Source: a virus
Length of the DNA stretch: 25,036 bases
Direction: 5' to 3' (one strand)
Virus record (IMG/VR): IMGVR_UViG_3300028800_000299
Coordinates: 1-25,036 of that record
The notes below the pieces were generated by a model. That model was not told where the DNA came from and did no database searches. It was given only the letters and a program-made list of their open reading frames with translations. Of this stretch, positions 5,207 through 24,201 are shown piece after piece; position 1 is the stretch's first letter, and every line of letters begins with the position of its first letter. The translations under genes and the position numbers were made by a program.

Positions 5207-7135
5207 CTACTTTGGGGGAGGTCCGCCCGGAGGCGGGCCTGGTGGTGGGGGTGGGCCTCCAGGGCCTGGTCCTTCACCACCACCCGGTGGACCTGGCGGT
5301 GGGCCACCTCCGCCAGATGGCGGTGGAGGTGGTGCCGATAACCCTGGCAATCCCATATCAGGGGCTCCAGGTGGCATGCCACCTGGTGGAGCGCCACCAG
5401 GAACTTCACCTGGAACCGGAGCTTCACCCTGAGCATTCTGTCCGGGCTTTGGAGCAATTTCAGGAATTTCATCTTCATCGTCAAGGGCACGAAGTTCATT
5501 AAGATCCATCGCCGCAAGTGATGCTGATTCTTTTTTAAAGATAGCTGCTTGAATAGCTTCTTTACGAAGTTTTCTCTGCTCGTCTTCATCTTCAAGGCCC
5601 ATTGATTTATATAAGGTACTCAAAGAAACTCTAGCAGATGAACCTTCTGCGGCTGGCTGTGTTAATGTAACAAGCTGTGTAATATAGTCCCCAGTGTCGA
5701 ATAATGACATGTGGTTCCAATCAACTTCTGGAACGATCAAATGCTTTTCGGTTTTTGATCCGCCTTGCTTGTATTCGTAGAAACCCTGAATCTTTGAAAT
5801 TGGTGCGAAGATTTTTCTTCTCAACCAATTCGACAACATGTTTCTAAATTGCATATATCTTTGACGTAAAACATCTAGGGCAACGCCAGCGTTAGCATAG
5901 GTTGTATCTGCCCCACCATCCATAACAGAAGATGGAACCTGAAGCCCAACGTAAATTTCTTTTATTAATTGAGTAATATCACCAGAGATATCATAGATGC
6001 CTTGGCTTGAACCAACTCTCTCAATAGCGATACCTGCATGAGAAAAAATCTTAAAATCTTTATCATACTGAGCTTGTTCGAAAAGCTCTCTCCACTGCTC
6101 AAGATCAGCGTGGGATGGATGTAGTGCATCTGCACCTTCCCCACCAATCTTAACAAGAGTTAATGGGTTAATCATATTATCTGCTTGCGCAAACTTTGAC
6201 TCTCTTAACTTATCAAATAACATTAATTGTCTGAAAATACAAACAGGCAAACCAGTACCTCTAATTTCGTATGGACTAATTTTTCTAGCCAAATGCGATA
6301 CATGAAAATTGTCAAGAGGAATGTTATCACCTCTCTTAACTGAATCAATTATATGACGATTCAACTTCTTTCTTTGCTCAATATCAGCTGGCTTATTAGA
6401 TTCTACAATTTGTTTTAAATTAAGATCTGGCTTCAACATGATGATTGGTTCGTTCGCAATAACTGTGCGATTTACAATCATGAAGTCTGGGTTTTGAATC
6501 ATAAGGCGACTCCACTTTCCCTTATTATTGTCAAGCTCAGCATAAATAAATGCTTCTCCAAGCAGCCAAAATTCTTGAGCAATCTGAACGCAAATGTTCA
6601 TAAGATCGATTTCTTCAATCATTTCATTGAAGAATTTTTGTACTTCAACGTTGTGGCATTTGATTTGCAATTTGCTAATCGGATAGGTACTATGAAGATT
6701 GATTGCGTTATGGACAAATGGATTTAACGCATAGAATGCGCGACACCAAGCGTTAATTGTGGCTCTATCTCTTGGAAGATTCTGATTGCTGCTTAGCCAA
6801 AGAGGAGAATATACTTCTGAAATTTGTTTTACTGTATTGCTTGTGCCACCAAATCCAACATTTCCGCTTGAAAGAGTTTGTGCATTTTTCTTAATTCCAC
6901 TACCACTGGCGGTGACAATGCCGCTGGTTGTTAGTCCATCGTCATTGAGTTTTGGTCCAGTGCCATCACGAAAGACTCCAGCGCTGACTTCATCTTGTAG
7001 GATGCCGCGGCGTACTTCAGATACGCCTTTGACCATGAGGGCACTCACTTGTGGGGCGGTATTTCTTCCGATAAGGAACTCATTTGATTTTGAAGATCCT
7101 TGTGGGATAGAGAATGTTTGTTTGAATTTTTTCAT
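5207..7135 (-). CDS. Portal protein with Pro/Gly-rich C-terminal tail
   Basis: The 642-residue protein is encoded directly after the large terminase, the usual place for the portal. The core (about 105-540) has the portal layout: an N-terminal wing (SPLWLSSNQNLPRDRATINA, then NPFVHNAINLHS), a beta-rich clip-like region, and a stem/crown region with DITQLIKEIYVGLQVPSSVM and a long helix GVALDVLRQRYMQFRNMLSN. Portals form the 12-fold ring through which DNA is packaged and which docks terminase and the connector. Residues 1-100 are Gly/Ser/Thr-rich and probably flexible. Residues 561-642 are an unusual Pro/Gly low-complexity tail. The start has GGAG at normal spacing. Core assignment rests on context and recognisable pattern, not on a catalytic motif. 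Confidence 0.85.
   Translation of the reverse strand: MKKFKQTFSIPQGSSKSNEFLIGRNTAPQVSALMVKGVSEVRRGILQDEVSAGVFRDGTGPKLNDDGLTTSGIVTASGSGIKKNAQTLSSGNVGFGGTSNTVKQISEVYSPLWLSSNQNLPRDRATINAWCRAFYALNPFVHNAINLHSTYPISKLQIKCHNVEVQKFFNEMIEEIDLMNICVQIAQEFWLLGEAFIYAELDNNKGKWSRLMIQNPDFMIVNRTVIANEPIIMLKPDLNLKQIVESNKPADIEQRKKLNRHIIDSVKRGDNIPLDNFHVSHLARKISPYEIRGTGLPVCIFRQLMLFDKLRESKFAQADNMINPLTLVKIGGEGADALHPSHADLEQWRELFEQAQYDKDFKIFSHAGIAIERVGSSQGIYDISGDITQLIKEIYVGLQVPSSVMDGGADTTYANAGVALDVLRQRYMQFRNMLSNWLRRKIFAPISKIQGFYEYKQGGSKTEKHLIVPEVDWNHMSLFDTGDYITQLVTLTQPAAEGSSARVSLSTLYKSMGLEDEDEQRKLRKEAIQAAIFKKESASLAAMDLNELRALDDEDEIPEIAPKPGQNAQGEAPVPGEVPGGAPPGGMPPGAPDMGLPGLSAPPPPPSGGGGPPPGPPGGGEGPGPGGPPPPPGPPPGGPPPK
5210..5455 (-). 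repeat. Low-complexity Pro/Gly coding tract (portal C-terminal tail)
   Basis: These bases encode portal residues 561-642, which are almost only Pro and Gly with a few Ala, Glu and Asp, in runs such as GPPPGPPGGG. On the plus strand the tract is a G-rich run of GGTGG/CCTGG-like units, in sharp contrast to the AT-rich surroundings. It is in frame with the portal and ends at its stop. It also opens false frames on both strands. Confidence 0.85.
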
Positions 7136-7198
7136 TAATCTCCGGCGAACGATACCTATATGCTGTATATTTAATATATCAATAAGATCAGGAATATA

Positions 7199-9061
7199 TT
7201 AAATTCTGCGCTTTATATACCCAGCTACTGCCAGAGGCTTGCCCTTGTTCTTCAAATTAGCATTCACCAAAAATGGATTGGTAACAGTAAAAGCTTTAGT
7301 TGCGATAAATTTATAAGCAATATAAGCATTCAATAAAGCCATGAGTCCATCGTTTGGTGTGGTTCCTTTGACATAATGTATGGATGGATCTCCGAATCTG
7401 GATGTAACTGGCTTGATATCCATACTTGCACAATGAGAAACTAACCAAGCTATTTTCTCAAAATCACCGTATGGGAATCTGATCATACCTTTTTTCATTT
7501 GCTCAAATAGTTCGCCAATGTAGTAATCCCTTTCAAACATTAATTCTTTAGGAAATAAGTCCTTATGGAATTGTATTTTGCCATTTATTTTATTATGGGC
7601 TCTTGACACAAGATACTTGTCGCCATACTCATTATGTAGATCGGAAGAAAAATCGTTTGAGAATCCAATATCCCCGATAGCCAATTGGACGCCGTATTGA
7701 CGCATGATATGATCAATAATATCTTTTTTACTCTTTGGGTCATTCTTTGGAAATTTGTAACAATAGTCCACCGATAATCGATTTGTTCCCTGAGATGTAA
7801 GGAGCACAGCTGTAGTATAGGACTGCCCTGTCATTTTACTTTTATTAGTATTAGCCATTTGATCTATGTCTGAACGGGCACCATAGTCGATTCCCAATGT
7901 CACGATTAAATCTTCGGTTGGTAGGATACGAGCGCGAAACTTTCTACCAATATCTCCACCCAATTCTCTTATTTGTTCTATGGTTATAGGGCTAGAGTCG
8001 CCTTGGAAGAATTCTCCCAAAACTTCGTTTTGGTAAACCCTTTCTGTATTGATTGGGTGGATACCTGGCTTTTCAGCAATGATTCTTTCTTTTGGAAATC
8101 CTGGCATGTATAATTGATTGATATGGAATCCAACCATACCACACTCACTTTCATCCTTGGGACTAACCCATTTTCCTCGCTCAACAGCCTGATTTTTATC
8201 TTGTTCATGCCCACAATCAGGACATTTAACAACGAATGTATGAATCCAAATTTTTTCCCAATCATCGCTACCAGGGGTATAGAGAGGGAAAAACTTTTCG
8301 CATTTTTCACAACCCAAGTGATAATACTGTTGATTTGATGTTTCCCAAAGGTTATAAAAATCTGAACCCTTTTTCTTAGGGGTTCCGAAATAAACTTGGA
8401 CGCCGTATCCTTTTGGTCCGTATTTTGACTGGGAAAGAATTTTGGTAGCATTTAAGATAGCTGCGCCTGTTGTGTCTTGACACTCGTCGAAGAACAACAT
8501 GTCTGCGGTTCTACCTCTGATTCTATCCGCATCGATACCTACAGATTCAATCCATAAATGGTTTCCATTTATAAATTGTTTAAAACTTAGCGAGTCGGTT
8601 GTAGAGCTAGTTTGATCTAGTCTCTTTTGCATAAATGATTTTGGTTTGGCAGATTTTACAACGCGATCTTCATCACTAATGGATGAATTAGAAATCATTG
8701 GATTTAATGTAGTTTTAGAATAAGATGCAGCCATTTCCAATTGAGGGAATGCATGCATGACTCTTACGGATGGTCTTCCGCCTGTGCCGAAACCATCGGA
8801 GCCCATGAAATACATTTCGAGGGCAGCCGCCATAATCGTCCCTCCGACTTGACGTCCCTTGACTAGAATGACTGGCTTACCATTTGGTTCTAAGGCCTTG
8901 ATTCCAATGTATCTATAAATATCAGCAAATGGCTTATAACCATTCCCATGCAATCTGAATGGATTTCCATCCAGTGTTAAATGAGATTCTGCGAAAGTAA
9001 CTGGATCAAGATCCAATATTTTACTTTTTATTTCTTTAAATAAATCTTTATCGAGAGACAA
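7199..9061 (-). CDS. terL: Terminase large subunit (TerL), packaging ATPase/nuclease
   Basis: The 620-residue protein has the full TerL layout. Walker A is KGRQVGGT (68-75), Walker B is MLFFDE (188-193) with catalytic Glu193, and the coupling segment is YFGTPKKKGS (224-233). The nuclease domain has acidic candidates Asp392 (GIDYGA), Asp464 (AIGDIG) and Asp571 (PNDGLMAL). Between ATPase and nuclease sits a zinc-ribbon-like insert, CEKC (251-254) with CPDC (280-283), of the kind found in GpA-like terminases. The enzyme pumps DNA into the prohead through the portal and cuts concatemers. The start is TTG with AGGA upstream; no in-frame ATG lies before the conserved N-terminus. It ends 63 bases before the portal start. 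The small subunit is not obvious. Confidence 0.95.
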   Translation of the reverse strand: MSLDKDLFKEIKSKILDLDPVTFAESHLTLDGNPFRLHGNGYKPFADIYRYIGIKALEPNGKPVILVKGRQVGGTIMAAALEMYFMGSDGFGTGGRPSVRVMHAFPQLEMAASYSKTTLNPMISNSSISDEDRVVKSAKPKSFMQKRLDQTSSTTDSLSFKQFINGNHLWIESVGIDADRIRGRTADMLFFDECQDTTGAAILNATKILSQSKYGPKGYGVQVYFGTPKKKGSDFYNLWETSNQQYYHLGCEKCEKFFPLYTPGSDDWEKIWIHTFVVKCPDCGHEQDKNQAVERGKWVSPKDESECGMVGFHINQLYMPGFPKERIIAEKPGIHPINTERVYQNEVLGEFFQGDSSPITIEQIRELGGDIGRKFRARILPTEDLIVTLGIDYGARSDIDQMANTNKSKMTGQSYTTAVLLTSQGTNRLSVDYCYKFPKNDPKSKKDIIDHIMRQYGVQLAIGDIGFSNDFSSDLHNEYGDKYLVSRAHNKINGKIQFHKDLFPKELMFERDYYIGELFEQMKKGMIRFPYGDFEKIAWLVSHCASMDIKPVTSRFGDPSIHYVKGTTPNDGLMALLNAYIAYKFIATKAFTVTNPFLVNANLKNKGKPLAVAGYIKRRI

Positions 9062-10765: not shown

Positions 10766-11257
10766 TTATTTCTTTTCTTTGACGTAATGGTTATCTAAAA
10801 CCCCATAGTATAGATTAGTTACAGGTTTATTCTCGAGATCTTCCTGTGGAATGATGCCATCATTTAATCCCAGTGGGCCAAGTGGTTCGGATGGGTTCCA
10901 TGGCATTTCAGTTACTTGATCTTCTAATGGGTCATTGATATGATTCTTATCGACAGCTGTCTTTGCCAAGATGGCAAATAACATTTTTCTTCTGCCGCGG
11001 ATTTTTTCAGCTCTCTTTTTCTTACGAAAGTCAGATACGCTTTTATAGTCATCCATGTGTTGATAGAGGCCTGTGCCTGGTCCAACGTCAGGGCCAGGAA
11101 GCTTATATGTATCGTAATTTCTAAACAATACACCCCTCGCTTTTGTTAAATTCTGATCATTCCCTGGATCTTTTTTATATTTTGGCTTTCCCGGGGTGGG
11201 ATCATTTTCATGATTACCACTCTGGAAATAACATTTTCTAATTAAATTTTCATTCAT
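10766..11257 (-). CDS. Hypothetical protein, 163 aa, basic centre
   Basis: I chose the ATG at 11257, which overlaps the stop of the nucleotidyltransferase by one base (TAATG), a usual sign of translational coupling. A longer frame from 11323 would overlap that enzyme by 67 bases and adds only sequence read out of frame from its end. The protein starts MNENLIRKCYF. It has a Pro/Gly-rich first half (GPDVGPGTGLYQ), a very basic helix (DFRKKKRAEKIRGRRKMLFA, near 77-96) and a Pro-rich second half. The basic helix could bind nucleic acid. No family recognised. Confidence 0.75.
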   Translation of the reverse strand: MNENLIRKCYFQSGNHENDPTPGKPKYKKDPGNDQNLTKARGVLFRNYDTYKLPGPDVGPGTGLYQHMDDYKSVSDFRKKKRAEKIRGRRKMLFAILAKTAVDKNHINDPLEDQVTEMPWNPSEPLGPLGLNDGIIPQEDLENKPVTNLYYGVLDNHYVKEKK

Positions 11258-12015
11258 TATTTTGCCGTTATTCGTTTTACATAATATGGATAAAGTTCTT
11301 TGGTTATTGGAATTTGGTTCCATAGACCCATCTCATCTAGTAAGTAAGTTGTTCTCGTTGGATTTACTGCAATTGCTTTATTCAATTTTTCAGCCAACGC
11401 TCTATCTGAAGCAAATCTCATGGAATCAGGATGTTGCTTTATCCATTGCATCAAAGCAGGATCAATGTCAAAATCCAATTTGGCGGCTAAATAAATTGCT
11501 CTGACAACTCTATTTTTATTGGATAGCAACGTAATTTCAGGAGATAGGCAGGTTCTAATTACCTTACTATTAATGTCTTTAAATCCACGGTTGGTTGGAT
11601 CAAGAATCTGTCTTAAATCCAAAGTCATAAGCAAAGCATTACAAGTAAAATCCCTACTAAACAATTCTCTTTGCATAGGGGTTGGATTTTCTATTTTTAA
11701 TTTTTGCAAATACTTATCAATTTCTGGGACAATGAAATTAGATGAAAAATCTACCTTGAATCCACCGATGAAAATAGAGCTGTGCCCATCATCCATAACT
11801 TTTGTTTGGATGTTGAACTTTCTATTCAATGAAACAGATGTTTCCTTAGAAAGCATATGAACTGACTCATCACCAGTTGTGAGATCAATATCTTCTATTT
11901 TGTTTAATCTACCCAAGATTTTATCACGTGGAGTCCCACCGCAAATAAATGGTGTAGATATTTGGCGTCTCTTAGCTACATTAGTAATTAACTTAAGAAG
12001 ATCTTTTAGTTTCAT
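11257..12015 (-). CDS. Class II nucleotidyltransferase (CCA-adding/poly(A) polymerase-like), short form
   Basis: The head domain is clear. It has CGGTPRDKILGR (25-36) with the GG-x2-RD signature, then DID (Asp42, Asp44), a third carboxylate at Asp89 (KVDF), and SRDFTCNALL (120-129), matching the R-D-F-T-x-N-A motif of tRNA nucleotidyltransferases and poly(A) polymerases. GFKDINSKVIRT and NRVVRAIYLAAKLDFDI (168-184) match the neck that follows the head. This family adds CCA to tRNA or A tails to RNA. At 252 residues it lacks most of the body and tail domains of cellular CCA enzymes, so specificity cannot be told. The start has GGGAG upstream. Placement inside the packaging/virion module is unusual. 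It may repair tRNAs damaged during infection, or use another substrate. Confidence 0.88.
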   Translation of the reverse strand: MKLKDLLKLITNVAKRRQISTPFICGGTPRDKILGRLNKIEDIDLTTGDESVHMLSKETSVSLNRKFNIQTKVMDDGHSSIFIGGFKVDFSSNFIVPEIDKYLQKLKIENPTPMQRELFSRDFTCNALLMTLDLRQILDPTNRGFKDINSKVIRTCLSPEITLLSNKNRVVRAIYLAAKLDFDIDPALMQWIKQHPDSMRFASDRALAEKLNKAIAVNPTRTTYLLDEMGLWNQIPITKELYPYYVKRITAK

Positions 12016-18222: not shown

Positions 18223-18663
18223 CTACCATTTTTCGCTACGAATCTCCGCCATCTTGTCAAGAATTTCTTTAATTTTTTCGTCTTTCTCAATTATTTTCCA
18301 AAGTTTCTTTTTGGCGCCACCGTAAACACGTTTGCCATTTTTATAATCTACATTGCCATTCAATGACTTTGTGATACTGGATTGATTGACATTGAGCATC
18401 TTGGCAATTTCCATTTGTGTATAACCATCAGCATATAATCTGATTACTTCTTTTTGTCTATCAGTAAGTAAAGTATTTACAATTCTCCAAAACTCTACCT
18501 TTAAGTCATCTTCAAGAAGCATTAAGTCTTCATTGTATTGAAATGGATTAAGACGATTATAGATTGAATCTTCATTACAGAACGCCTCCATCATATCGTT
18601 TGAGCACACAGTCTCAAGCAAAACATATTGGTAGCGATCTGAACGATTTTGTCTTTTATTCAT
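18223..18663 (-). CDS. Sigma region 4-like helix-turn-helix protein, 146 aa
   Basis: The central part (66-103 from my start) is a clear HTH of the sigma-70 region 4/LuxR type: LTDRQKEVIRLYADGYTQME, then IAKMLNVNQSSITKSL. It is followed by KRVYGGAKKKLWKI, a basic segment also fit for DNA contact. Sigma region 2 is absent, so it is not a complete sigma factor; a transcription regulator or sigma-like adaptor is more likely. I chose the ATG at 18663, which has GGAG at proper spacing; the ATG four codons earlier has none. Its position just before the virion module makes it a candidate regulator of late genes (inference). Confidence 0.82.
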   Translation of the reverse strand: MNKRQNRSDRYQYVLLETVCSNDMMEAFCNEDSIYNRLNPFQYNEDLMLLEDDLKVEFWRIVNTLLTDRQKEVIRLYADGYTQMEIAKMLNVNQSSITKSLNGNVDYKNGKRVYGGAKKKLWKIIEKDEKIKEILDKMAEIRSEKW

Positions 18664-18686
18664 GCCCAACTCCATAAAATTATTCG

Positions 18687-19484
18687 CTAATGTATATTTG
18701 TATTCCTTACGCTAAAAGGTATGGAATCATTATCATTTTGCGAAAGATATTCGTAAATATCTTTATAACCTATCGGCAAATGTAAATTATGAACATTTGC
18801 AATGTTTCCAAACTTACTCATAGCTCTAGAGCTACCGACTTCACCACCTTCATCATTGTCGAATAGTATAAAGATATTCTTACTATATCGACAAATTAAC
18901 GATAATTGATAGTCCGTTATGTTATTATTGCCCACCGCTACAAAATTAAAGTGACCTTTCTCCCTAGCCTTGATGACATCGAATTGACCCTCGACAACAT
19001 AAGCTAAGTCTTTCTCTATAATCGACTGTTTTGCCTCATATAATCCGAATACGTGATTGCCCTTTTTGAAGAAAGTGTTCTTATATTTTGGTATCTTAGC
19101 AGCCTCTCGTTCTTGATCTGAGAGTAAAGTTCTGCCTACTAAGGCGATAATATTACCATAAACATCGCGATATGGCAAAATAAGTGGATGATTCTCAAAA
19201 AAAGAATTAAATACCTTCTTATAAGATACCGTTTCTTCAAGTATCCAGTGAGACAGCAACTGCGCTTCTTTTAATTTTTCTTCACTCACGAATGAAGTTA
19301 GTAGATTGATGTTATCGATTCCTGGGAAATATCCAAACTTAAATTCTTCTTGCATTTGCGGATTCAATCTAGAGTTCACATACTCTCGATATGGCTCAGC
19401 AAAAGGAGAATTATTTAATAGGTATCGGCAAGCATCCACAACATCGTCATAAGAATGGGATTTGTAAATTTTCTTAGATGACAA
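18687..19484 (-). CDS. DnaG-type primase catalytic core (TOPRIM), lacking the N-terminal zinc domain
   Basis: The 265-residue protein aligns with the RNA polymerase core of DnaG primases. It has FGYFPG (50-55), then LILPYRDVYGNIIALVGRTL (101-120), KYKNTFFKKGNHVFGL (133-148), TOPRIM motif YVVEGQFDVI with Glu165, and FDNDEGG with Asp209/Asp211 for metal binding. It makes RNA primers for DNA synthesis. Cellular DnaG has an N-terminal CHC2 zinc domain and a C-terminal helicase-binding domain; neither is here. A separate two-ribbon zinc protein is encoded two genes upstream and could supply the first. The start is TTG with GAGG upstream and overlaps the previous gene by 11 bases. No helicase gene is in the window. 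Confidence 0.9.
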   Translation of the reverse strand: MSSKKIYKSHSYDDVVDACRYLLNNSPFAEPYREYVNSRLNPQMQEEFKFGYFPGIDNINLLTSFVSEEKLKEAQLLSHWILEETVSYKKVFNSFFENHPLILPYRDVYGNIIALVGRTLLSDQEREAAKIPKYKNTFFKKGNHVFGLYEAKQSIIEKDLAYVVEGQFDVIKAREKGHFNFVAVGNNNITDYQLSLICRYSKNIFILFDNDEGGEVGSSRAMSKFGNIANVHNLHLPIGYKDIYEYLSQNDNDSIPFSVRNTNIH

Positions 19485-19716
19485 GATCGCCTCGCTTTAT
19501 CCAAGCACCAATTATTTGTAAAATCGTATATTTGATGCTAGCCTCGGATTTGTTATTATGAAGCTGATTTATGTAATGCTTAGTCTCTTCATTTATTTCA
19601 TTGAGCAAATCATATAAATTATCGTTTTTTAATTTCCAATCCAAAGGGTGTGGTTTAATATCAAATATTAAACAACCTCTATTAATACGAAACGTAATTT
19701 CTGGTAGTTCAGACAT
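19474..19716 (-). CDS. Small hypothetical protein, 80 aa, between zinc protein and primase
   Basis: The frame overlaps its neighbours on both sides (8 bases with the zinc-ribbon gene, 11 with the primase), a strong sign of a real coupled gene. It starts MSELPEITFRINRGCLIFDI and continues into two amphipathic helices (NLYDLLNEINEETKHYINQL; SIKYTILQIIGAWIKRGDL). No known family. It may belong functionally with the primase and zinc protein. Confidence 0.75.
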   Translation of the reverse strand: MSELPEITFRINRGCLIFDIKPHPLDWKLKNDNLYDLLNEINEETKHYINQLHNNKSEASIKYTILQIIGAWIKRGDLVI

Positions 19717-20041
19717 CCTTATCTACTTTCTTTAGCTGCGTCTTTAACATTCGCTTGAATGTCTCAGTGAGGTGCGCTAGAGGATCACCGCACGATGAAC
19801 ACACTATATCCGTGCCGTTGTCCACCGGTCTGTCCTCTTTTCCGCATTTTTGACACTTCACACTGAATGGAACCTTCTTAACCTCCCGATATTGTTTCAA
19901 AGCTTTTAGTTGCATCTTGATAAAATGATTTACTTTATCCAATTTTTTATTACAAAGACCGCAAAATACTTCTTCGGTTTTTGGATTTAGATAAGGGTCT
20001 ACCGCCTTGTTACAGAACGGGCACAACATTTGAACAGCCAT
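19709..20041 (-). CDS. Tandem zinc-ribbon protein, 110 aa
   Basis: Two zinc ribbons are visible: Cys7/Cys10 with Cys27/Cys30, and Cys63/Cys66 with Cys81/Cys84 (CPFC, CGLC, CQKC, CSSC). Each is followed by a similar helix (VNHFIKMQLKAL and LTETFKRMLKTQL), so the protein looks like a duplication of ribbon plus helix. Zinc ribbons of this type bind DNA, RNA or polymerase subunits. The gene has a strong AGGAGA site, starts right after the DnaJ stop, and lies two genes ahead of a primase core that has no zinc domain. It could be the template-reading partner of that primase, or a transcription factor. Confidence 0.85.
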   Translation of the reverse strand: MAVQMLCPFCNKAVDPYLNPKTEEVFCGLCNKKLDKVNHFIKMQLKALKQYREVKKVPFSVKCQKCGKEDRPVDNGTDIVCSSCGDPLAHLTETFKRMLKTQLKKVDKDV

Positions 20042-21028
20042 TTAATTCTCCTGATTCTTTAGGAATTTTATTAGTTTATCAGTCTCTGGTGGGTAAAGTA
20101 CATATAGCTTAACTCGTTCATTACCGACACGATTAACACCTAAATTGGGTAGGATAACTTCATCCTTGTTTTTAGATTGTGGTGGAATTGTAATTGTCGT
20201 GATTCCATCTATTGTTGGAACGGTTACTTCAGTTCCTTCGAGCGCTTCCAATAGAGAAATTTTCTTTCCCGTTACTACATCATTCCCTTCAATTTTTAGA
20301 GTAACTGATTTTTCAACTTTGACATGCAAAATTACATCAGTGTATGCATCACCAATCATACCGTGGCCAGCGTAGTCACCGATTCCTACCAATCGTAAAA
20401 CATCCCTTCCTTCATGAACCCCTGGTGGTATATTTGCCTCAATAGATATATTCGTTTCTAAAAACCCATCTTCTTTACACTTGACACAAGATTCATATTT
20501 CGTTGCACCACGACAGGAACCACACGCCCCTCGCATGGTCATATGGCCCTGGACCATCGTTATGAATCCGGTTCCTTTACATGGCGTGCAACCATTTGAT
20601 ACTTGTTTTTTACCTTGACCATTGCAATCGTCACATTTTGTTTTTCTACTATATGATAGAGGTTTTTGACATCCCAACACAGATTCACGAAAACTAATTG
20701 TCGTGTTTAGATGTTTATCTTCCACGATAATAGTTTTTCTATTGGAACCGCCCATACCGTGCTGGCGTAGAAGATCTTCAATGTTTATACTGAAACCATG
20801 ACTGCTACTACTGTAGGTGTGGGCTGGAGCTTCAGTGGGACCAAATCCTTGACCCGTGGTTAGATACTGATAGGCCTCATTGACTTCCTTAAACTTTTCT
20901 TCAGCATCAGATTCTTTATTACGATCAGGATGATATTTAGCCGCAGTCTTCTTATAAGCCTTCTTCAAATCATCTTCAGATGTATCCTCAGTAGTTCCCA
21001 ATACGGAGTGTGCTTTTGTTCTATCCAT
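20042..21028 (-). CDS. dnaJ: DnaJ (Hsp40) co-chaperone, class I
   Basis: All parts of a class I J-protein are present in 328 residues. The J domain carries the HPD motif at 33-35 (KYHPDRN), which triggers DnaK ATP hydrolysis. A short Gly/Phe-Ser linker follows (60-80). Four CxxC pairs come next: Cys132/135, 147/150, 169/172 and 181/184, three of them in near CxxCxGxG form. Two substrate-binding beta domains close the protein (from about 190). It is slightly shorter than bacterial DnaJ, mainly in the linker. No DnaK is encoded here, so it presumably recruits the host DnaK. The start overlaps the RuvC stop (TAATG), which places it in the replication operon; it may remodel replication or regulator complexes. 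Confidence 0.95.
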   Translation of the reverse strand: MDRTKAHSVLGTTEDTSEDDLKKAYKKTAAKYHPDRNKESDAEEKFKEVNEAYQYLTTGQGFGPTEAPAHTYSSSSHGFSINIEDLLRQHGMGGSNRKTIIVEDKHLNTTISFRESVLGCQKPLSYSRKTKCDDCNGQGKKQVSNGCTPCKGTGFITMVQGHMTMRGACGSCRGATKYESCVKCKEDGFLETNISIEANIPPGVHEGRDVLRLVGIGDYAGHGMIGDAYTDVILHVKVEKSVTLKIEGNDVVTGKKISLLEALEGTEVTVPTIDGITTITIPPQSKNKDEVILPNLGVNRVGNERVKLYVLYPPETDKLIKFLKNQEN

Positions 21029-21621
21029 TATTCTTTCTTGCCTTTCTTTGCTTTTTTAACTTTTGGTTTTTTAATTTTTAATATTATTTTACCTGTGTGT
21101 ACGTATGCACAATATAACGCGACTGCTACGCTGTCTGCCATGTCTTCTGAAACTGAATCAATATTTCCCTTCTTTTTATAAACATAAGGAAATGCAATTC
21201 CCAAATGGCTCGCGACAAGTTCAGGCATCTCTTCTTTTTTTGGTAGCACTGGCGTCTTTTTCAACCCATGACGAATCTGCATGACATTGAATAATTCTGG
21301 TGACTTGCTCAAATAATCATGTGCTAATAAGCCAATCATTCGATTAAAAACTGCCAAAGTAATAACCGTTTTGGCGCTGCTTTTATTTTTCATGAATTGA
21401 ATAATATCTTCCACTGCAATATAATCTGGTTTAAAATCATCAATGATTTTTTTTATTATATTTTTCGTATGATAGAGTCTTTCTAATATATTGCCTTTCT
21501 TAATTGGCTTATGATAATTACATTTGATAAATTTAACATCATTAGTAGTATCATCGAATTCTAATACAGAGTAGCCGATGCAAGTACTGGAAATATCGAA
21601 ACCTAATATTTTTTTAATCAT
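21028..21621 (-). CDS. RuvC-like Holliday junction resolvase
   Basis: The 197-residue protein has the RNase H-fold resolvase layout: first strand with Asp9 (LGFDISSTCIGYSV), Glu71 in YIAVEDIIQF (68-77), and terminal acidic residues Asp160/Asp163 in SVSEDMADSVAVAL. A Lys-rich tail (KIKKPKVKKAKKGKKE) would add DNA affinity. It would cut branched DNA during recombination or before packaging. The start is fixed by the catalytic Asp9; it has no obvious Shine-Dalgarno sequence and lies 19 bases past the terminator after the ssDNA-binding gene. Its stop overlaps the DnaJ start. Confidence 0.85.
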   Translation of the reverse strand: MIKKILGFDISSTCIGYSVLEFDDTTNDVKFIKCNYHKPIKKGNILERLYHTKNIIKKIIDDFKPDYIAVEDIIQFMKNKSSAKTVITLAVFNRMIGLLAHDYLSKSPELFNVMQIRHGLKKTPVLPKKEEMPELVASHLGIAFPYVYKKKGNIDSVSEDMADSVAVALYCAYVHTGKIILKIKKPKVKKAKKGKKE

Positions 21622-21691: not shown

Positions 21692-22429
21692 TTAACTTGT
21701 TGCGGTTTCTTCGTTATACTCTGGGAAGATATCGTCAACGCCCTCAGTTTCTTGAGGAACGACATCTGGTGTCTTACGAGCGGTTGCCTTTCCACCTGAC
21801 TTGCCGGCTGCTGCTGGCTTTGCTGGTGGAATGAATGGTGCAGCTCCTTCAAGAACATGATCGAGTCTCTTTTGAACTTGTTCAGGAGTTGGAGGAGTTA
21901 CCTTGCGAGCTAGCTCTGCTGAGTTAGCGCCGTCTCTTGCCTTCTTAGCTTCAACAGATAATTCCTTGTGAGGAATTGGTTGAACCATGTAGTAACCAGT
22001 TGGGCCACCATTCTTGTTAACTTTGATGTTGATATCATAGTTCTTTGGATTGCCCCAGATTTCATCGTTTGATAATGCTTTGATCGCTGCATATACTTGA
22101 TATGAAACGTCAAGAATTTTGTACTGATTGGTCTTGATTTCGATCACGCCAATAAACCATCTTTGGCCTGCCTTTAAACCTAAGTCACAGGCTGGGCAAG
22201 AACCTTTGCCATCGGGGTTTGAACAATTTACTTTTTGTCCGAAACCTTTAAGGTCATCAGCTTTCTTCACGCCCTTGTGAACGATGTATTGAAAAGCGTT
22301 TGTTACTAGTCTAACTACGTTAGAGCCGCTGTCTAATCTAAGCCAAAGATCCTTTGAGTTAGGTTGTCTACCACTAGTTGGTTCGCTTTCGTCGTCCCAA
22401 GATACTTCGCCATTTCCATATGTTGCCAT
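21692..22429 (-). CDS. ssDNA-binding protein, gp32-like with zinc site and acidic tail
   Basis: The 245-residue protein has an OB-like core (LWLRLDSGSNVVRLVTNAF; RWFIGVIEIKTNQYKILDVS) and the sequence GPTGYYMVQP typical of phage ssDNA-binding proteins. His51, Cys69, Cys78 and Cys81 (SCPACDLG) are spaced much like the His-Cys-Cys-Cys zinc site of T4 gp32. After a Pro/Ala/Lys linker it ends in an acidic tail (GVDDIFPEYNEE), the part that in this class recruits partner proteins. It would coat single strands during replication and cooperate with the recombinase and the UvsY-like candidate. The start has AAGGAAAA upstream and an intrinsic terminator follows the gene. Confidence 0.88.
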   Translation of the reverse strand: MATYGNGEVSWDDESEPTSGRQPNSKDLWLRLDSGSNVVRLVTNAFQYIVHKGVKKADDLKGFGQKVNCSNPDGKGSCPACDLGLKAGQRWFIGVIEIKTNQYKILDVSYQVYAAIKALSNDEIWGNPKNYDINIKVNKNGGPTGYYMVQPIPHKELSVEAKKARDGANSAELARKVTPPTPEQVQKRLDHVLEGAAPFIPPAKPAAAGKSGGKATARKTPDVVPQETEGVDDIFPEYNEETATS

Positions 22430-22841: not shown

Positions 22842-23216
22842 TTATTTTTTGCTTGCTGTTTTAAATACAAGACTTTTTACACTATGAATTGTGTGCCAAG
22901 GAATCCACATTTCGGTGATTTGAGTTGCGGTTGCGCTGGCAATCAGTTCTTTGTATCCTGTTACTATATCGTCTTCCGTGCTATCTGAAAAAAAACCTTT
23001 TACATGAATGAAATCGTTATTAAATGCAACCTGATCGAGTGCGATAAACATCCGATAAGTTTTTAATTTGGAGCCTAAATCTGGTAATATTTTCACTAAA
23101 TATGAAGTTACCATTTTAGCTGGAGGTCCGTTAGGGATTCCGGGAATCCCTACGCTTACTGGAGACGTATCTTTAAAAGCGCCTACTGCGCCAACTGCTA
23201 AATCTTTATTCGTCAT
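22842..23216 (-). CDS. Hypothetical small beta-rich protein, 124 aa
   Basis: Three ATGs are in frame at the start (23228, 23219, 23216). The last one has GAGG at the best spacing and gives MTNKDLAVGAVG; its 11-base overlap with the recombinase stop suggests coupling. After a Gly/Pro-rich N-terminus (GIPGIPNGPPAKM) the protein has several probable strands (YLVKILPD, TYRMFIALDQVAF, DFIHVKGFF) and ends with EMWIPWHTIHSVKSLVFK. That close resembles the last strands of small barrel proteins, but no diagnostic motif is complete. Role unknown; context says replication/recombination. Confidence 0.75.
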   Translation of the reverse strand: MTNKDLAVGAVGAFKDTSPVSVGIPGIPNGPPAKMVTSYLVKILPDLGSKLKTYRMFIALDQVAFNNDFIHVKGFFSDSTEDDIVTGYKELIASATATQITEMWIPWHTIHSVKSLVFKTASKK

Positions 23217-24201
23217 CATTATCCTCATCTACGTCGTTGGAATCATCCCAGCCCTTTATATCATCAATCTTTTTTACTTCCTTGGCTAATTGAACACCGC
23301 TTGCGGAAATAACTAAGTTCATTTGGTAGATTGATTCGTCACCGTCAAACAAGTGGTTTTTCTTAACCTTAGCGCGAGTTACGATTCCGTACTTGTATTT
23401 CTCGCCATCTTTCGTTCTTGTGAGATCTTGTTTTCTTGAAAGTTGAATAATTAAAGAACTTAAGTAGTAAAGGGTTCCACCGCCTTTTTCAATTTGAGAA
23501 GGGGCGCCCATACCAATGGAAACGTAAGTCTGGTTGATGACTAAAACCGCTATGCATTCCTCACCAGTTTCCTTATTCATGTATCTGTTCATGAGCTTCT
23601 GGAACTTGTGTATGGCGCTTCCGGTTTCCTTAGCAGAAACACCAGGCTGCATTGATTGATCTTCCGTATCAGCCTTATCTTCTGTTGAATTGAGAGTCGC
23701 GCCGACGCTATCCCAAACGATCAAAATCTTGATATCAGGGTCAAGTTCTTTCGCAGCATGAACGTAGTGTGCTACAGCTTTTGCACCGTCATTGATATTG
23801 TTAGAACGGACAAGAGCTAATCTGCTTGAATCTCCACCAATCTTCTTATCGAATCTGCCGACTTGGAACTTTCTTTCACTATCCCAAAGGATAACTAAGA
23901 CATCTTGATCTTGCGCATACTTCATGAAGGACATTGCATGCGTTGATTTACCGCTATCTGCTTTACCGCTTATTTGCGTAACGATTCCGTATTTCAATCC
24001 TGGCAAGTGAGTTAATTCGTGCCAATGGTCTCCGCCCTGCCATAAAATGAAGTCATCATCAGTTGTCGCTGGAAGCGTGGCGCCTGTGCAAAGTTGTTTT
24101 GCTAGACCGCCTTCTTTTTTTGAATATGAAGTTTGTGCCTTTTTAACCAAAGCATCAATATCTAATTTTGCTAATTTACCCTTCTTGTCATCCTTTGCCA
24201 T
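23206..24201 (-). CDS. RecA/UvsX-like recombinase
   Basis: The 331-residue ATPase has Walker A GKADSGKST (79-87), Walker B ILIVWDS with Asp164, and the L2-region VINQTYVSIGM (221-231). GGTLYYLSSLIIQLSR (241-256) is typical of the RecA core. The N-terminal 60 residues and the acidic C-terminus (DDSNDVDEDNDDE) are family-typical extras. It would form filaments on single strands and drive strand exchange, with the ssDNA-binding protein and the coiled-coil protein encoded just before it. UvsX is the likelier group from the phage setting, but RecA cannot be excluded. The start has AGAGGG upstream. Confidence 0.92.
   Translation of the reverse strand: MAKDDKKGKLAKLDIDALVKKAQTSYSKKEGGLAKQLCTGATLPATTDDDFILWQGGDHWHELTHLPGLKYGIVTQISGKADSGKSTHAMSFMKYAQDQDVLVILWDSERKFQVGRFDKKIGGDSSRLALVRSNNINDGAKAVAHYVHAAKELDPDIKILIVWDSVGATLNSTEDKADTEDQSMQPGVSAKETGSAIHKFQKLMNRYMNKETGEECIAVLVINQTYVSIGMGAPSQIEKGGGTLYYLSSLIIQLSRKQDLTRTKDGEKYKYGIVTRAKVKKNHLFDGDESIYQMNLVISASGVQLAKEVKKIDDIKGWDDSNDVDEDNDDE

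What the first reader, a model, noticed from the sequence alone, without database searches (positions are those of the whole stretch)
18687..20041. Primase core without a zinc domain, with a separate two-ribbon zinc protein in the same operon
Seen: the TOPRIM primase (FGYFPG, YVVEGQFDVI, FDNDE) starts directly at its catalytic core, with no CHC2 zinc domain. Two genes upstream, overlapping through an 80-residue gene, a 110-residue protein carries two zinc ribbons. Known: DnaG needs its zinc domain to read the template. Inference: the zinc function may be supplied in trans by a split primase made of three small proteins, with the 80-residue protein as a possible link.
Basis: partly seen in the sequence, partly recalled or inferred. 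Interest (0 to 1): 0.55.

Follow-up and report, generated by a model that had tools for sequence, protein, structure and literature searches.

The report
Split primase, but wrong zinc protein
A giant-phage enzyme that starts DNA copying does seem to be split into separate genes, but its zinc part is most likely made by a gene about 20,000 bases away in its relatives, not by the small zinc protein next door.

Summary
The 265-residue protein is a genuine DnaG-type catalytic core (DNAG_N + TOPRIM). It has no zinc domain, and its reading frame extends only 4 codons above the start. A 110-residue double zinc ribbon lies two genes upstream.

In 20 of 20 relatives searched (contigs of 150-481 kb), a separate protein of about 200-230 residues carries the true primase zinc domain (CHC2, PF01807). 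It lies 17.7-25.9 kb upstream on the same strand, which here would be beyond the window. So the primase is probably split, but into core + CHC2 protein.

The 110-residue protein lies upstream of the core in every fetched IMG/VR locus with upstream DNA. It shows no convincing likeness to CHC2 (profile-profile probability 3%). It is missing from one relative that keeps the gene block, the core and the CHC2 gene, and was not detected in phage G, which encodes core and CHC2 separately. The 80-residue 'link' was found only in the window.

A standalone primase zinc ribbon accompanying a DnaG-like core is already in print for other jumbo phages (PMC7824862). Added here: a huge-phage clade with Pol III-type polymerase, and the distinction between the true zinc partner and a look-alike neighbour.

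The parts
18687..19484 (-). Stand-alone DnaG-type catalytic core (RNA polymerase domain: DNAG_N + TOPRIM), 265 aa, TTG start
   Evidence: Pfam; TIGR01391 dnaG positions 119-353, E 4e-33; AlphaFold mean pLDDT 93.8; VIA-align Z 25.1, rmsd 4.3, 243 aligned to Aquifex primase 2au3
19474..19716 (-). 80-aa gene between zinc gene and core; found in this window only; not a conserved link
   Evidence: no match in the 127 other loci at E 0.1; no Pfam match; best PHROG match E 0.0043, unknown function; other genes lie in the same slot in L096, L054, L073
19709..20041 (-). 110-aa double zinc ribbon (two C4 ribbons, each followed by a helix in the model), conserved accessory gene, not the CHC2 domain
   Evidence: 8 Cys invariant in 53/53; weak generic zinc-ribbon hits only; hhalign to the CHC2 profile prob 3.2%, E 0.014; model mean pLDDT 78.8, pTM 0.47
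18223..18675 (-). sigma-70 region-4-like HTH protein, next gene of the conserved block
20042..21028 (-). DnaJ-like protein, upstream gene of the conserved block
   Evidence: DnaJ, DnaJ_C
21028..21621 (-). RuvC-like resolvase of the conserved block
21692..22429 (-). SSB-like protein of the conserved block (weak assignment)
   Evidence: best PHROG match is a family of unknown function (E 2.1e-10), then single-strand binding proteins at E 1.6e-4 and 3.6e-4; synteny
23206..24201 (-). RecA/UvsX-like recombinase of the conserved block

Best explanation
The 265-residue protein is one half of a two-gene DnaG-type primase of a huge phage. The other half is a separate CHC2 zinc-binding protein of about 200-230 residues, whose gene lies about 18-26 kb upstream on the same strand in relatives, i.e. 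outside this window. Proposed working: the CHC2 protein reads the template start site and holds the primer's 5' end, while the core makes the RNA. The two meet on a DnaB-type helicase instead of through a covalent linker; the conserved C-terminal part of the CHC2 protein is the likely dock. The neighbouring 110-residue double zinc ribbon is a separate, conserved but dispensable accessory protein (probably nucleic-acid or polymerase binding), and the 80-residue gene is a local insertion. Shown by sequence: the core's identity, the absence of a zinc domain in cis, a separate CHC2 gene in 20/20 relatives searched, and absence of the zinc-ribbon gene in one relative. Inferred: physical cooperation in trans, helicase docking, the presence of the CHC2 gene in the window's own phage, and the accessory role.
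For: The core aligns with DnaG from about residue 91-115 on (sequence match to 2au3 from 112), and the CHC2 protein matches the DnaG N-terminal zinc domain (PF01807), so the split falls at the known domain boundary. PF01807 over cut-off in 20/20 genomes, one protein each (a second, sub-cut-off hit in G009). DNAG_N over cut-off once in each of 20 (second, sub-cut-off hits in G003 and G018). All 20 CHC2 genes lie 17.7-25.9 kb upstream on the same strand. CHC2 ligands C/H/C/C invariant in 19/19 aligned. L184 (383-kb contig) keeps the block, core and CHC2 but lacks the 110-aa gene; no A4 match at E<=1 in its MAG, while both control genomes match. Phage G: gp229 CHC2 (210 aa) and gp419 core (235 aa) are separate genes with no A4 match at E 0.1. 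CHC2 protein and core both match PHROG 6444, a DNA primase family, at successive positions. DnaB_C over cut-off in 13/20 records.
Against: The window itself holds no CHC2 gene, and its record ends there. The 110-aa gene lies upstream of the core in 126 of 128 loci (the other two, L015 and L028, begin at the core), which fits a functional tie, although the neighbouring genes are conserved too. Its absence rests on one close relative (L184, completeness of contig and MAG unknown) and one distant phage (G), where the search had no positive control of its own and where PMC7824862 reports about 35 copies of another zinc ribbon. PF01807 and the core profile miss T4 gp61 altogether, so a divergent second template-reading ribbon cannot be excluded by profile alone. 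In the distance comparison the core follows CHC2 (partial r 0.68) hardly better than DnaJ (0.66). 7 of 20 records show no over-cut-off DnaB_C.
Confidence: 0.85

Rival explanations
1. One reading: the adjacent 110-aa double zinc ribbon is the template-reading zinc module of a split primase, with the 80-aa protein as link.
For: Same operon, overlapping genes; the zinc gene lies upstream of the core in 126 of 128 loci, the other two being cut at the core, and in 27 of 27 further ones; C4-type ribbons exist in T7/T4 primases (recalled).
Against: A genuine CHC2 protein exists in 20/20 relatives searched; no convincing profile likeness to CHC2 (prob 3.2%); gene absent in L184, which keeps core and CHC2; not found in phage G; 80-aa gene in the window only.
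Confidence: 0.06
2. The 110-aa protein is an accessory third factor of the split primase/primosome (for example a loader or second ssDNA reader), working together with CHC2 and core.
For: Kept upstream of the core in all fetched IMG/VR loci with upstream DNA; two invariant C4 ribbons and conserved basic residues.
Against: The block RecA-p128-SSB-RuvC-DnaJ-Zn-Prim-Sig-p215-p540 is conserved as a whole, so adjacency does not single out the primase; the gene is missing in L184; partial distance correlation with the core is only 0.38.
Confidence: 0.2
3. The 110-aa protein is a transcription or translation factor (RNA polymerase- or ribosome-binding double zinc ribbon) that is only co-transcribed with replication genes.
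For: Weak best fold matches are RNA polymerase I/II subunit entries (Foldseek chain I) and eIF5/eIF2B, archaeal/eukaryotic large-subunit and pre-initiation-complex ribbons; weak sequence matches eL34 and eS27; a sigma-region-4-like gene follows the core.
Against: All matches are below significance (best VIA Z 3.5; best Foldseek E 0.054) and zinc ribbons are generic; Sig remains without Zn in L184.
Confidence: 0.35
4. The core is not a replicative primase but a TOPRIM protein with another task (e.g. repair), and CHC2 is unrelated to it.
For: Small core without the C-terminal DnaG helicase-binding domain; one acidic position is changed in the window's copy.
Against: The other DnaG catalytic positions checked are intact; it is the only DNAG_N protein over cut-off in 20/20 genomes, each with one CHC2 protein over cut-off; Pol III alpha in 12/12 genomes searched suggests a phage-encoded replication apparatus.
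Confidence: 0.05

Closest known systems
Jumbo-phage DnaG-like primase accompanied by a standalone primase-type zinc ribbon (PMC7824862, section 3.4.1, passages seen)
   Same: TOPRIM core and primase-type zinc ribbon made as separate proteins; jumbo phages.
   Different: The passage ties it to the review's group 2 phages (family B DNA polymerase); the relatives here have no DNA_pol_B match in 12/12 and Pol III alpha in 12/12 genomes. The passage is one sentence and gives no experiment or gene spacing.
Bacillus phage G gp229 (CHC2) and gp419 (core)
   Same: Two separate genes; gp229 hits PF01807 (E 2.6e-19) and gp419 hits the core profile (E 2.3e-20).
   Different: About 154 kb apart on opposite strands instead of about 20 kb upstream on the same strand; no match to the 110-aa zinc family at E 0.1.
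Short CHC2-type PHROG families 11992 (177 positions, unknown function), 18097 (199, DNA primase) and 360 (133, DNA primase)
   Same: Profiles the size of a free zinc-domain protein; the five CHC2 proteins scanned match 11992 and most match 18097 and 360.
   Different: The matches cover the zinc domain mainly; members of these families and their core partners were not examined.
Full-length bacterial DnaG and fused phage primases (PHROG 6444; Porphyromonas phage BK068110 primase)
   Same: Same catalytic core and CHC2-type zinc domain.
   Different: One polypeptide: in BK068110 both the core and the CHC2 query match inside one primase gene. Leptospira phage LE4 (577 aa) and Bacillus phage Glittering (336 aa) primases are long enough for a fused domain, but theirs was not tested.
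T4 gp61 / T7 gp4 primase
   Same: Core fold (T7 entries Z 13.9-14.9, T4 entries Z 11.8-12.6); in T4 zinc domain and core each dock on the helicase (PMC10359460, passages).
   Different: Zinc domain and core are covalently linked there.

Membership tests
DnaG-type primase catalytic core (RNA polymerase domain) | DNAG_N + TOPRIM domains in order | tested here: met
   Pfam over cut-off: PF08275 49.8 bits, PF13155 44.3 bits
DnaG-type primase catalytic core (RNA polymerase domain) | DnaG core fold | tested here: met
   Z 21.2-25.1 to the 12 DnaG entries at the top of the list, 235-246 residues aligned
DnaG-type primase catalytic core (RNA polymerase domain) | catalytic acidic and basic residues (list recalled: E, DxD, second DxD, R/K) | tested here: met
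   R118, K133, E165, D169, D209, D211, D242 in 55/55; exception: position 244 is Y in the window, D in the 54 others
Full-length three-domain DnaG | CHC2 zinc domain in the same polypeptide | tested here: not met
   no PF01807 in the protein; open frame 269 codons
Full-length three-domain DnaG | C-terminal helicase-binding domain | tested here: not met
   no such Pfam hit at E 0.1; the protein's end aligns near DnaG residue 355-384
Split DnaG primase (core + standalone CHC2) | separate CHC2 protein in the same genome | tested here: inconclusive
   20/20 relatives plus L184; not in the 25-kb window record, which ends before the expected place
Split DnaG primase (core + standalone CHC2) | the two proteins work together | not testable with these tools
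   no complex prediction or assay available
CHC2 / Zn_ribbon_DnaG (PF01807) for the 110-aa protein | CHC2 profile match | tested here: not met
   not among the 20 hits of the window protein at E 0.1; for the 53 members, not among the 25 families shown of 48. Caveat: PF01807 also misses T4 gp61
CHC2 / Zn_ribbon_DnaG (PF01807) for the 110-aa protein | similarity to the phages' own CHC2 proteins | tested here: not met
   hhalign prob 3.2%, E 0.014, 18 columns around one CxxC
DUF678 (PF05077) for the 110-aa protein | score over Pfam cut-off | tested here: inconclusive
   window protein 24.0 against cut-off 24.1 bits; 35 of 53 members at E<=0.01, best 3.6e-6

The most novel reading that the evidence does not exclude
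A DnaG primase naturally broken into two unlinked polypeptides (core and CHC2), joined only through the helicase, with a clade-specific double zinc ribbon as a third, regulatory primosome subunit. It would be a primase that starts and measures primers without any linker between its zinc and catalytic parts.
Probability: 0.15. Interest if true: 0.55.

Novelty: new member of a known kind. Interest (0 to 1): 0.35.

Why it matters
The T4 work (PMC10359460, passages) proposed that the linker between zinc domain and core helps set primer length, but saw only a small effect when the linker was changed. Primases in which no linker exists are natural tests of that idea, and phage G, whose record names a Bacillus megaterium strain as host, carries such a pair (gp229, gp419). 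The case also warns that a zinc-ribbon gene beside a zinc-less primase need not be its missing domain.

Tried and rejected
Rejected: the 80-aa gene as a conserved link (no match in the 127 other loci; a 90-aa gene in the same slot of L096 is not detectably similar, E 1.3). Rejected: adjacency as proof of partnership, because the whole block is conserved. Rejected as weak: correlation of evolutionary distances over 19 genomes (partial r core-CHC2 0.68, core-DnaJ 0.66, core-p540 0.56, core-Zn 0.38). No named family for the 110-aa protein from PDB sequence search (best E 0.0052, ribosomal eL34), Foldseek (best E 0.054) or VIA-align (best Z 3.5). No phage record matched it by tblastn at E 0.01. 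A weak score of its profile on phage G gp229 (5.3 bits, a search of two sequences) was disregarded. Huge phages LR756502, LR745206, LR756511 and LR756504, found through DnaJ, gave at most weak core matches and no 110-aa match; in LR756511 the weak core match and a sub-cut-off CHC2 match both lie in a 339-codon frame, so that one looks fused. Atu_ph07 (named in the review's group 2.2) and T4 gave no match to the CHC2 family or to the core profile, so the review's statement on group 2 could not be checked with these profiles.

Limits of counts: the primase scan kept 80 of 114 matches, and many fetched loci are overlapping stretches or near-copies. The 20 genomes were picked by me as large contigs among those then fetched, not all of them; G003 and G018 look like near-copies, so G018 was dropped from the distance comparison and its CHC2 protein from alignment A5. 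The 12 genomes are a subset of those 20. L015 and L028 begin at the core and cannot show an upstream gene. Of the six loci, L184 is used; L185 begins inside the core; L186 and L187 are CHC2-core proteins in one chain; L188 is a 513-aa protein matching the core profile; L189 gave a 77-aa weak match.

Literature: full-text searches of one held open-access library. Among what I looked into, only PMC7824862 states the standalone zinc ribbon; most other papers were seen as listings only, and papers outside that library were not searched.

Full report
What was checked. The window is a 25,036-base virus record. On the minus strand it carries RecA-like, SSB-like, RuvC-like and DnaJ-like genes, the 110-aa zinc gene, an 80-aa gene, the primase core, a sigma-region-4-like gene and further genes. 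Downstream are a portal and a terminase large-subunit gene. The core has DNAG_N and TOPRIM domains and no CHC2 domain. Its open frame is 269 codons for a 265-aa protein, so a zinc domain in cis is excluded.

The core is a genuine DnaG core. A 55-sequence alignment gave an AlphaFold model of mean pLDDT 93.8. It aligns with 12 DnaG entries at Z 21.2-25.1 (2au3: Z 25.1, rmsd 4.3, 243 residues), starting at DnaG residues 91-115 and ending at 355-384. Of the positions checked, R118, K133, E165, D169, D209, D211 and D242 are invariant in 55/55. The window alone has Y at 244, where the 54 others have D. NCBIfam dnaG matches at positions 119-353, below its own cut-off for the whole protein. So the zinc domain and the C-terminal helicase-binding domain are both missing.

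The neighbourhood. Scans of IMG/VR with the core and the zinc gene gave loci of a clade with contigs of up to 481 kb. In 76 loci with distinct core sequences (one of them the window's own), the genes found keep the order RecA-p128-SSB-RuvC-DnaJ-Zn-Prim-Sig-p215-p540; many loci are cut short by contig ends, and I did not check each missing end gene. Only L015 and L028, which begin at the core, show no zinc gene. The 80-aa gene occurs in the window alone; other genes sit in that slot in L096, L054 and L073. A further scan with divergent zinc sequences found 38 loci. The 27 new ones all have the core after the zinc gene, and the other 11 had been annotated, with the same result. Zinc without core was therefore not seen, but because the whole block is conserved this does not single out a zinc-core partnership.

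The true zinc domain. Searching 20 large contigs of the clade for PF01807 found one separate protein over the Pfam cut-off in 20 of 20, and DNAG_N over the cut-off in one place in 20 of 20. The 110-aa family is present once at high score in 20 of 20 (one further weak hit in G010). The CHC2 match lies 17,746 to 25,862 bases upstream of the core match on the same strand in all 20. The proteins (201-229 aa) have CP...H...C.GC motifs with invariant C/H/C/C ligands (19 of 19 aligned) and a partly conserved C-terminal part for which the five proteins scanned gave no Pfam family over its cut-off. In L133 a calcineurin-like phosphoesterase gene follows. Their PHROG matches include the DNA primase family phrog_6444 (positions 9-104 for L149), and the core matches the same family at 121-360. 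The split thus lies at the zinc-domain/core boundary. The window has no such gene, but holds only about 5.5 kb upstream of the core.

The 110-aa protein is something else. It has two C4 ribbons with all eight Cys invariant in 53 of 53. Profile-profile comparison with the CHC2 proteins gives 3.2% probability (E 0.014) over 18 columns. Pfam hits are weak and generic; DUF678 comes nearest, 0.1 bit under its cut-off. Structure matches are weak: Z 3.5 or less, to eIF5/eIF2B, ribosomal and pre-initiation-complex chains, and Foldseek E 0.054 or more, led by RNA polymerase I/II entries. One relative, L184, found in a 383-kb contig filed in a Chitinophagales MAG, keeps RecA-SSB-RuvC-DnaJ-Prim-Sig-p215-p540 but lacks the zinc gene; the DnaJ and core frames overlap. 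The MAG has no match to the zinc profile at E 1, while two control genomes match. The same contig has a CHC2 gene (179 aa) 19 kb upstream of the core. Absence of the zinc gene with retention of CHC2 argues that CHC2, not the 110-aa protein, is the core's zinc partner. Bacillus phage G fits, more distantly: gp229 (CHC2, 210 aa, annotated 'DNA primase') and gp419 (core, 235 aa, 'DnaG-like DNA primase') are separate genes on opposite strands, and the zinc family gives no match. That empty result had no positive control in the same call, and the review reports about 35 copies of another zinc ribbon in phage G.

How it probably works. In DnaG the zinc domain binds initiation trinucleotides on the template (PMC3290774, passage). 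In T4 both zinc domain and core dock on the helicase through separate motifs, and the zinc domain holds the primer's 5' end (PMC10359460, passages). Trans-action of primase subunits has been reported (Corn 2005; title seen in a reference list, content recalled). A split primase could therefore be assembled on the helicase without a linker. DnaB_C proteins in frames of 469-482 codons are present over the cut-off in 13 of 20 records. These last steps are inferred.

What is known. PMC7824862 (passages) states that in group 2 jumbo phages the DnaG-like primase tends to be accompanied by the standalone primase-type zinc ribbon that is fused to the TOPRIM domain in cellular primases. The relatives here have no family B polymerase match (0 of 12) but Pol III alpha (12 of 12), so they resemble the review's group 3.2 (phage G). 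Short CHC2 families also exist in PHROGs. The finding is thus a further member of a known kind, in another lineage. The function of the 110-aa family is open.

Uncertainty. The presence of CHC2 in the window's own phage is predicted, not seen. PF01807 does not detect T4's zinc domain, so absence of a match is weak evidence on its own; the finding of CHC2 in all 20 relatives carries the argument. Distance correlations favour core-CHC2 (0.68) only marginally over core-DnaJ (0.66).

Noticed in passing
window 18687-19484 (residue 244): The window's core has Y where the 54 other aligned homologues have D, at what is probably the last acidic position of the TOPRIM site; it could be a sequencing error, a tolerated change or a weakened enzyme.
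   Followed up: partly
L184 877-3135: The RecA-like gene reads as 752 aa against 331 in the window, suggesting an intein or fusion.
   Followed up: no
L184, about 6766-7488: A reading that looks by eye like a GIY-YIG-type homing endonuclease sits between core and sigma-like gene, followed by a similar partial copy.
   Followed up: no
L013 867-1868: The RecA-like gene is in two pieces (106 and 176 aa), perhaps an interrupted or frameshifted copy.
   Followed up: no
L054 5229-5786 and L073 5461-6015: Two phages carry genes of 185 and 184 aa, alike by eye and of unknown function, between zinc gene and core; the slot seems to accept insertions.
   Followed up: partly
window 11257-12015: tRNA nucleotidyltransferase-like gene (PHROG 2244, E 1.1e-15) on the same strand as the terminase and portal genes.
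   Followed up: no
G019:C1:253486-255633: Pol III alpha matches in two pieces inside a 1631-codon frame, unlike the 902-1218 codon frames of the other 11 genomes, suggesting an insertion such as an intein.
   Followed up: no
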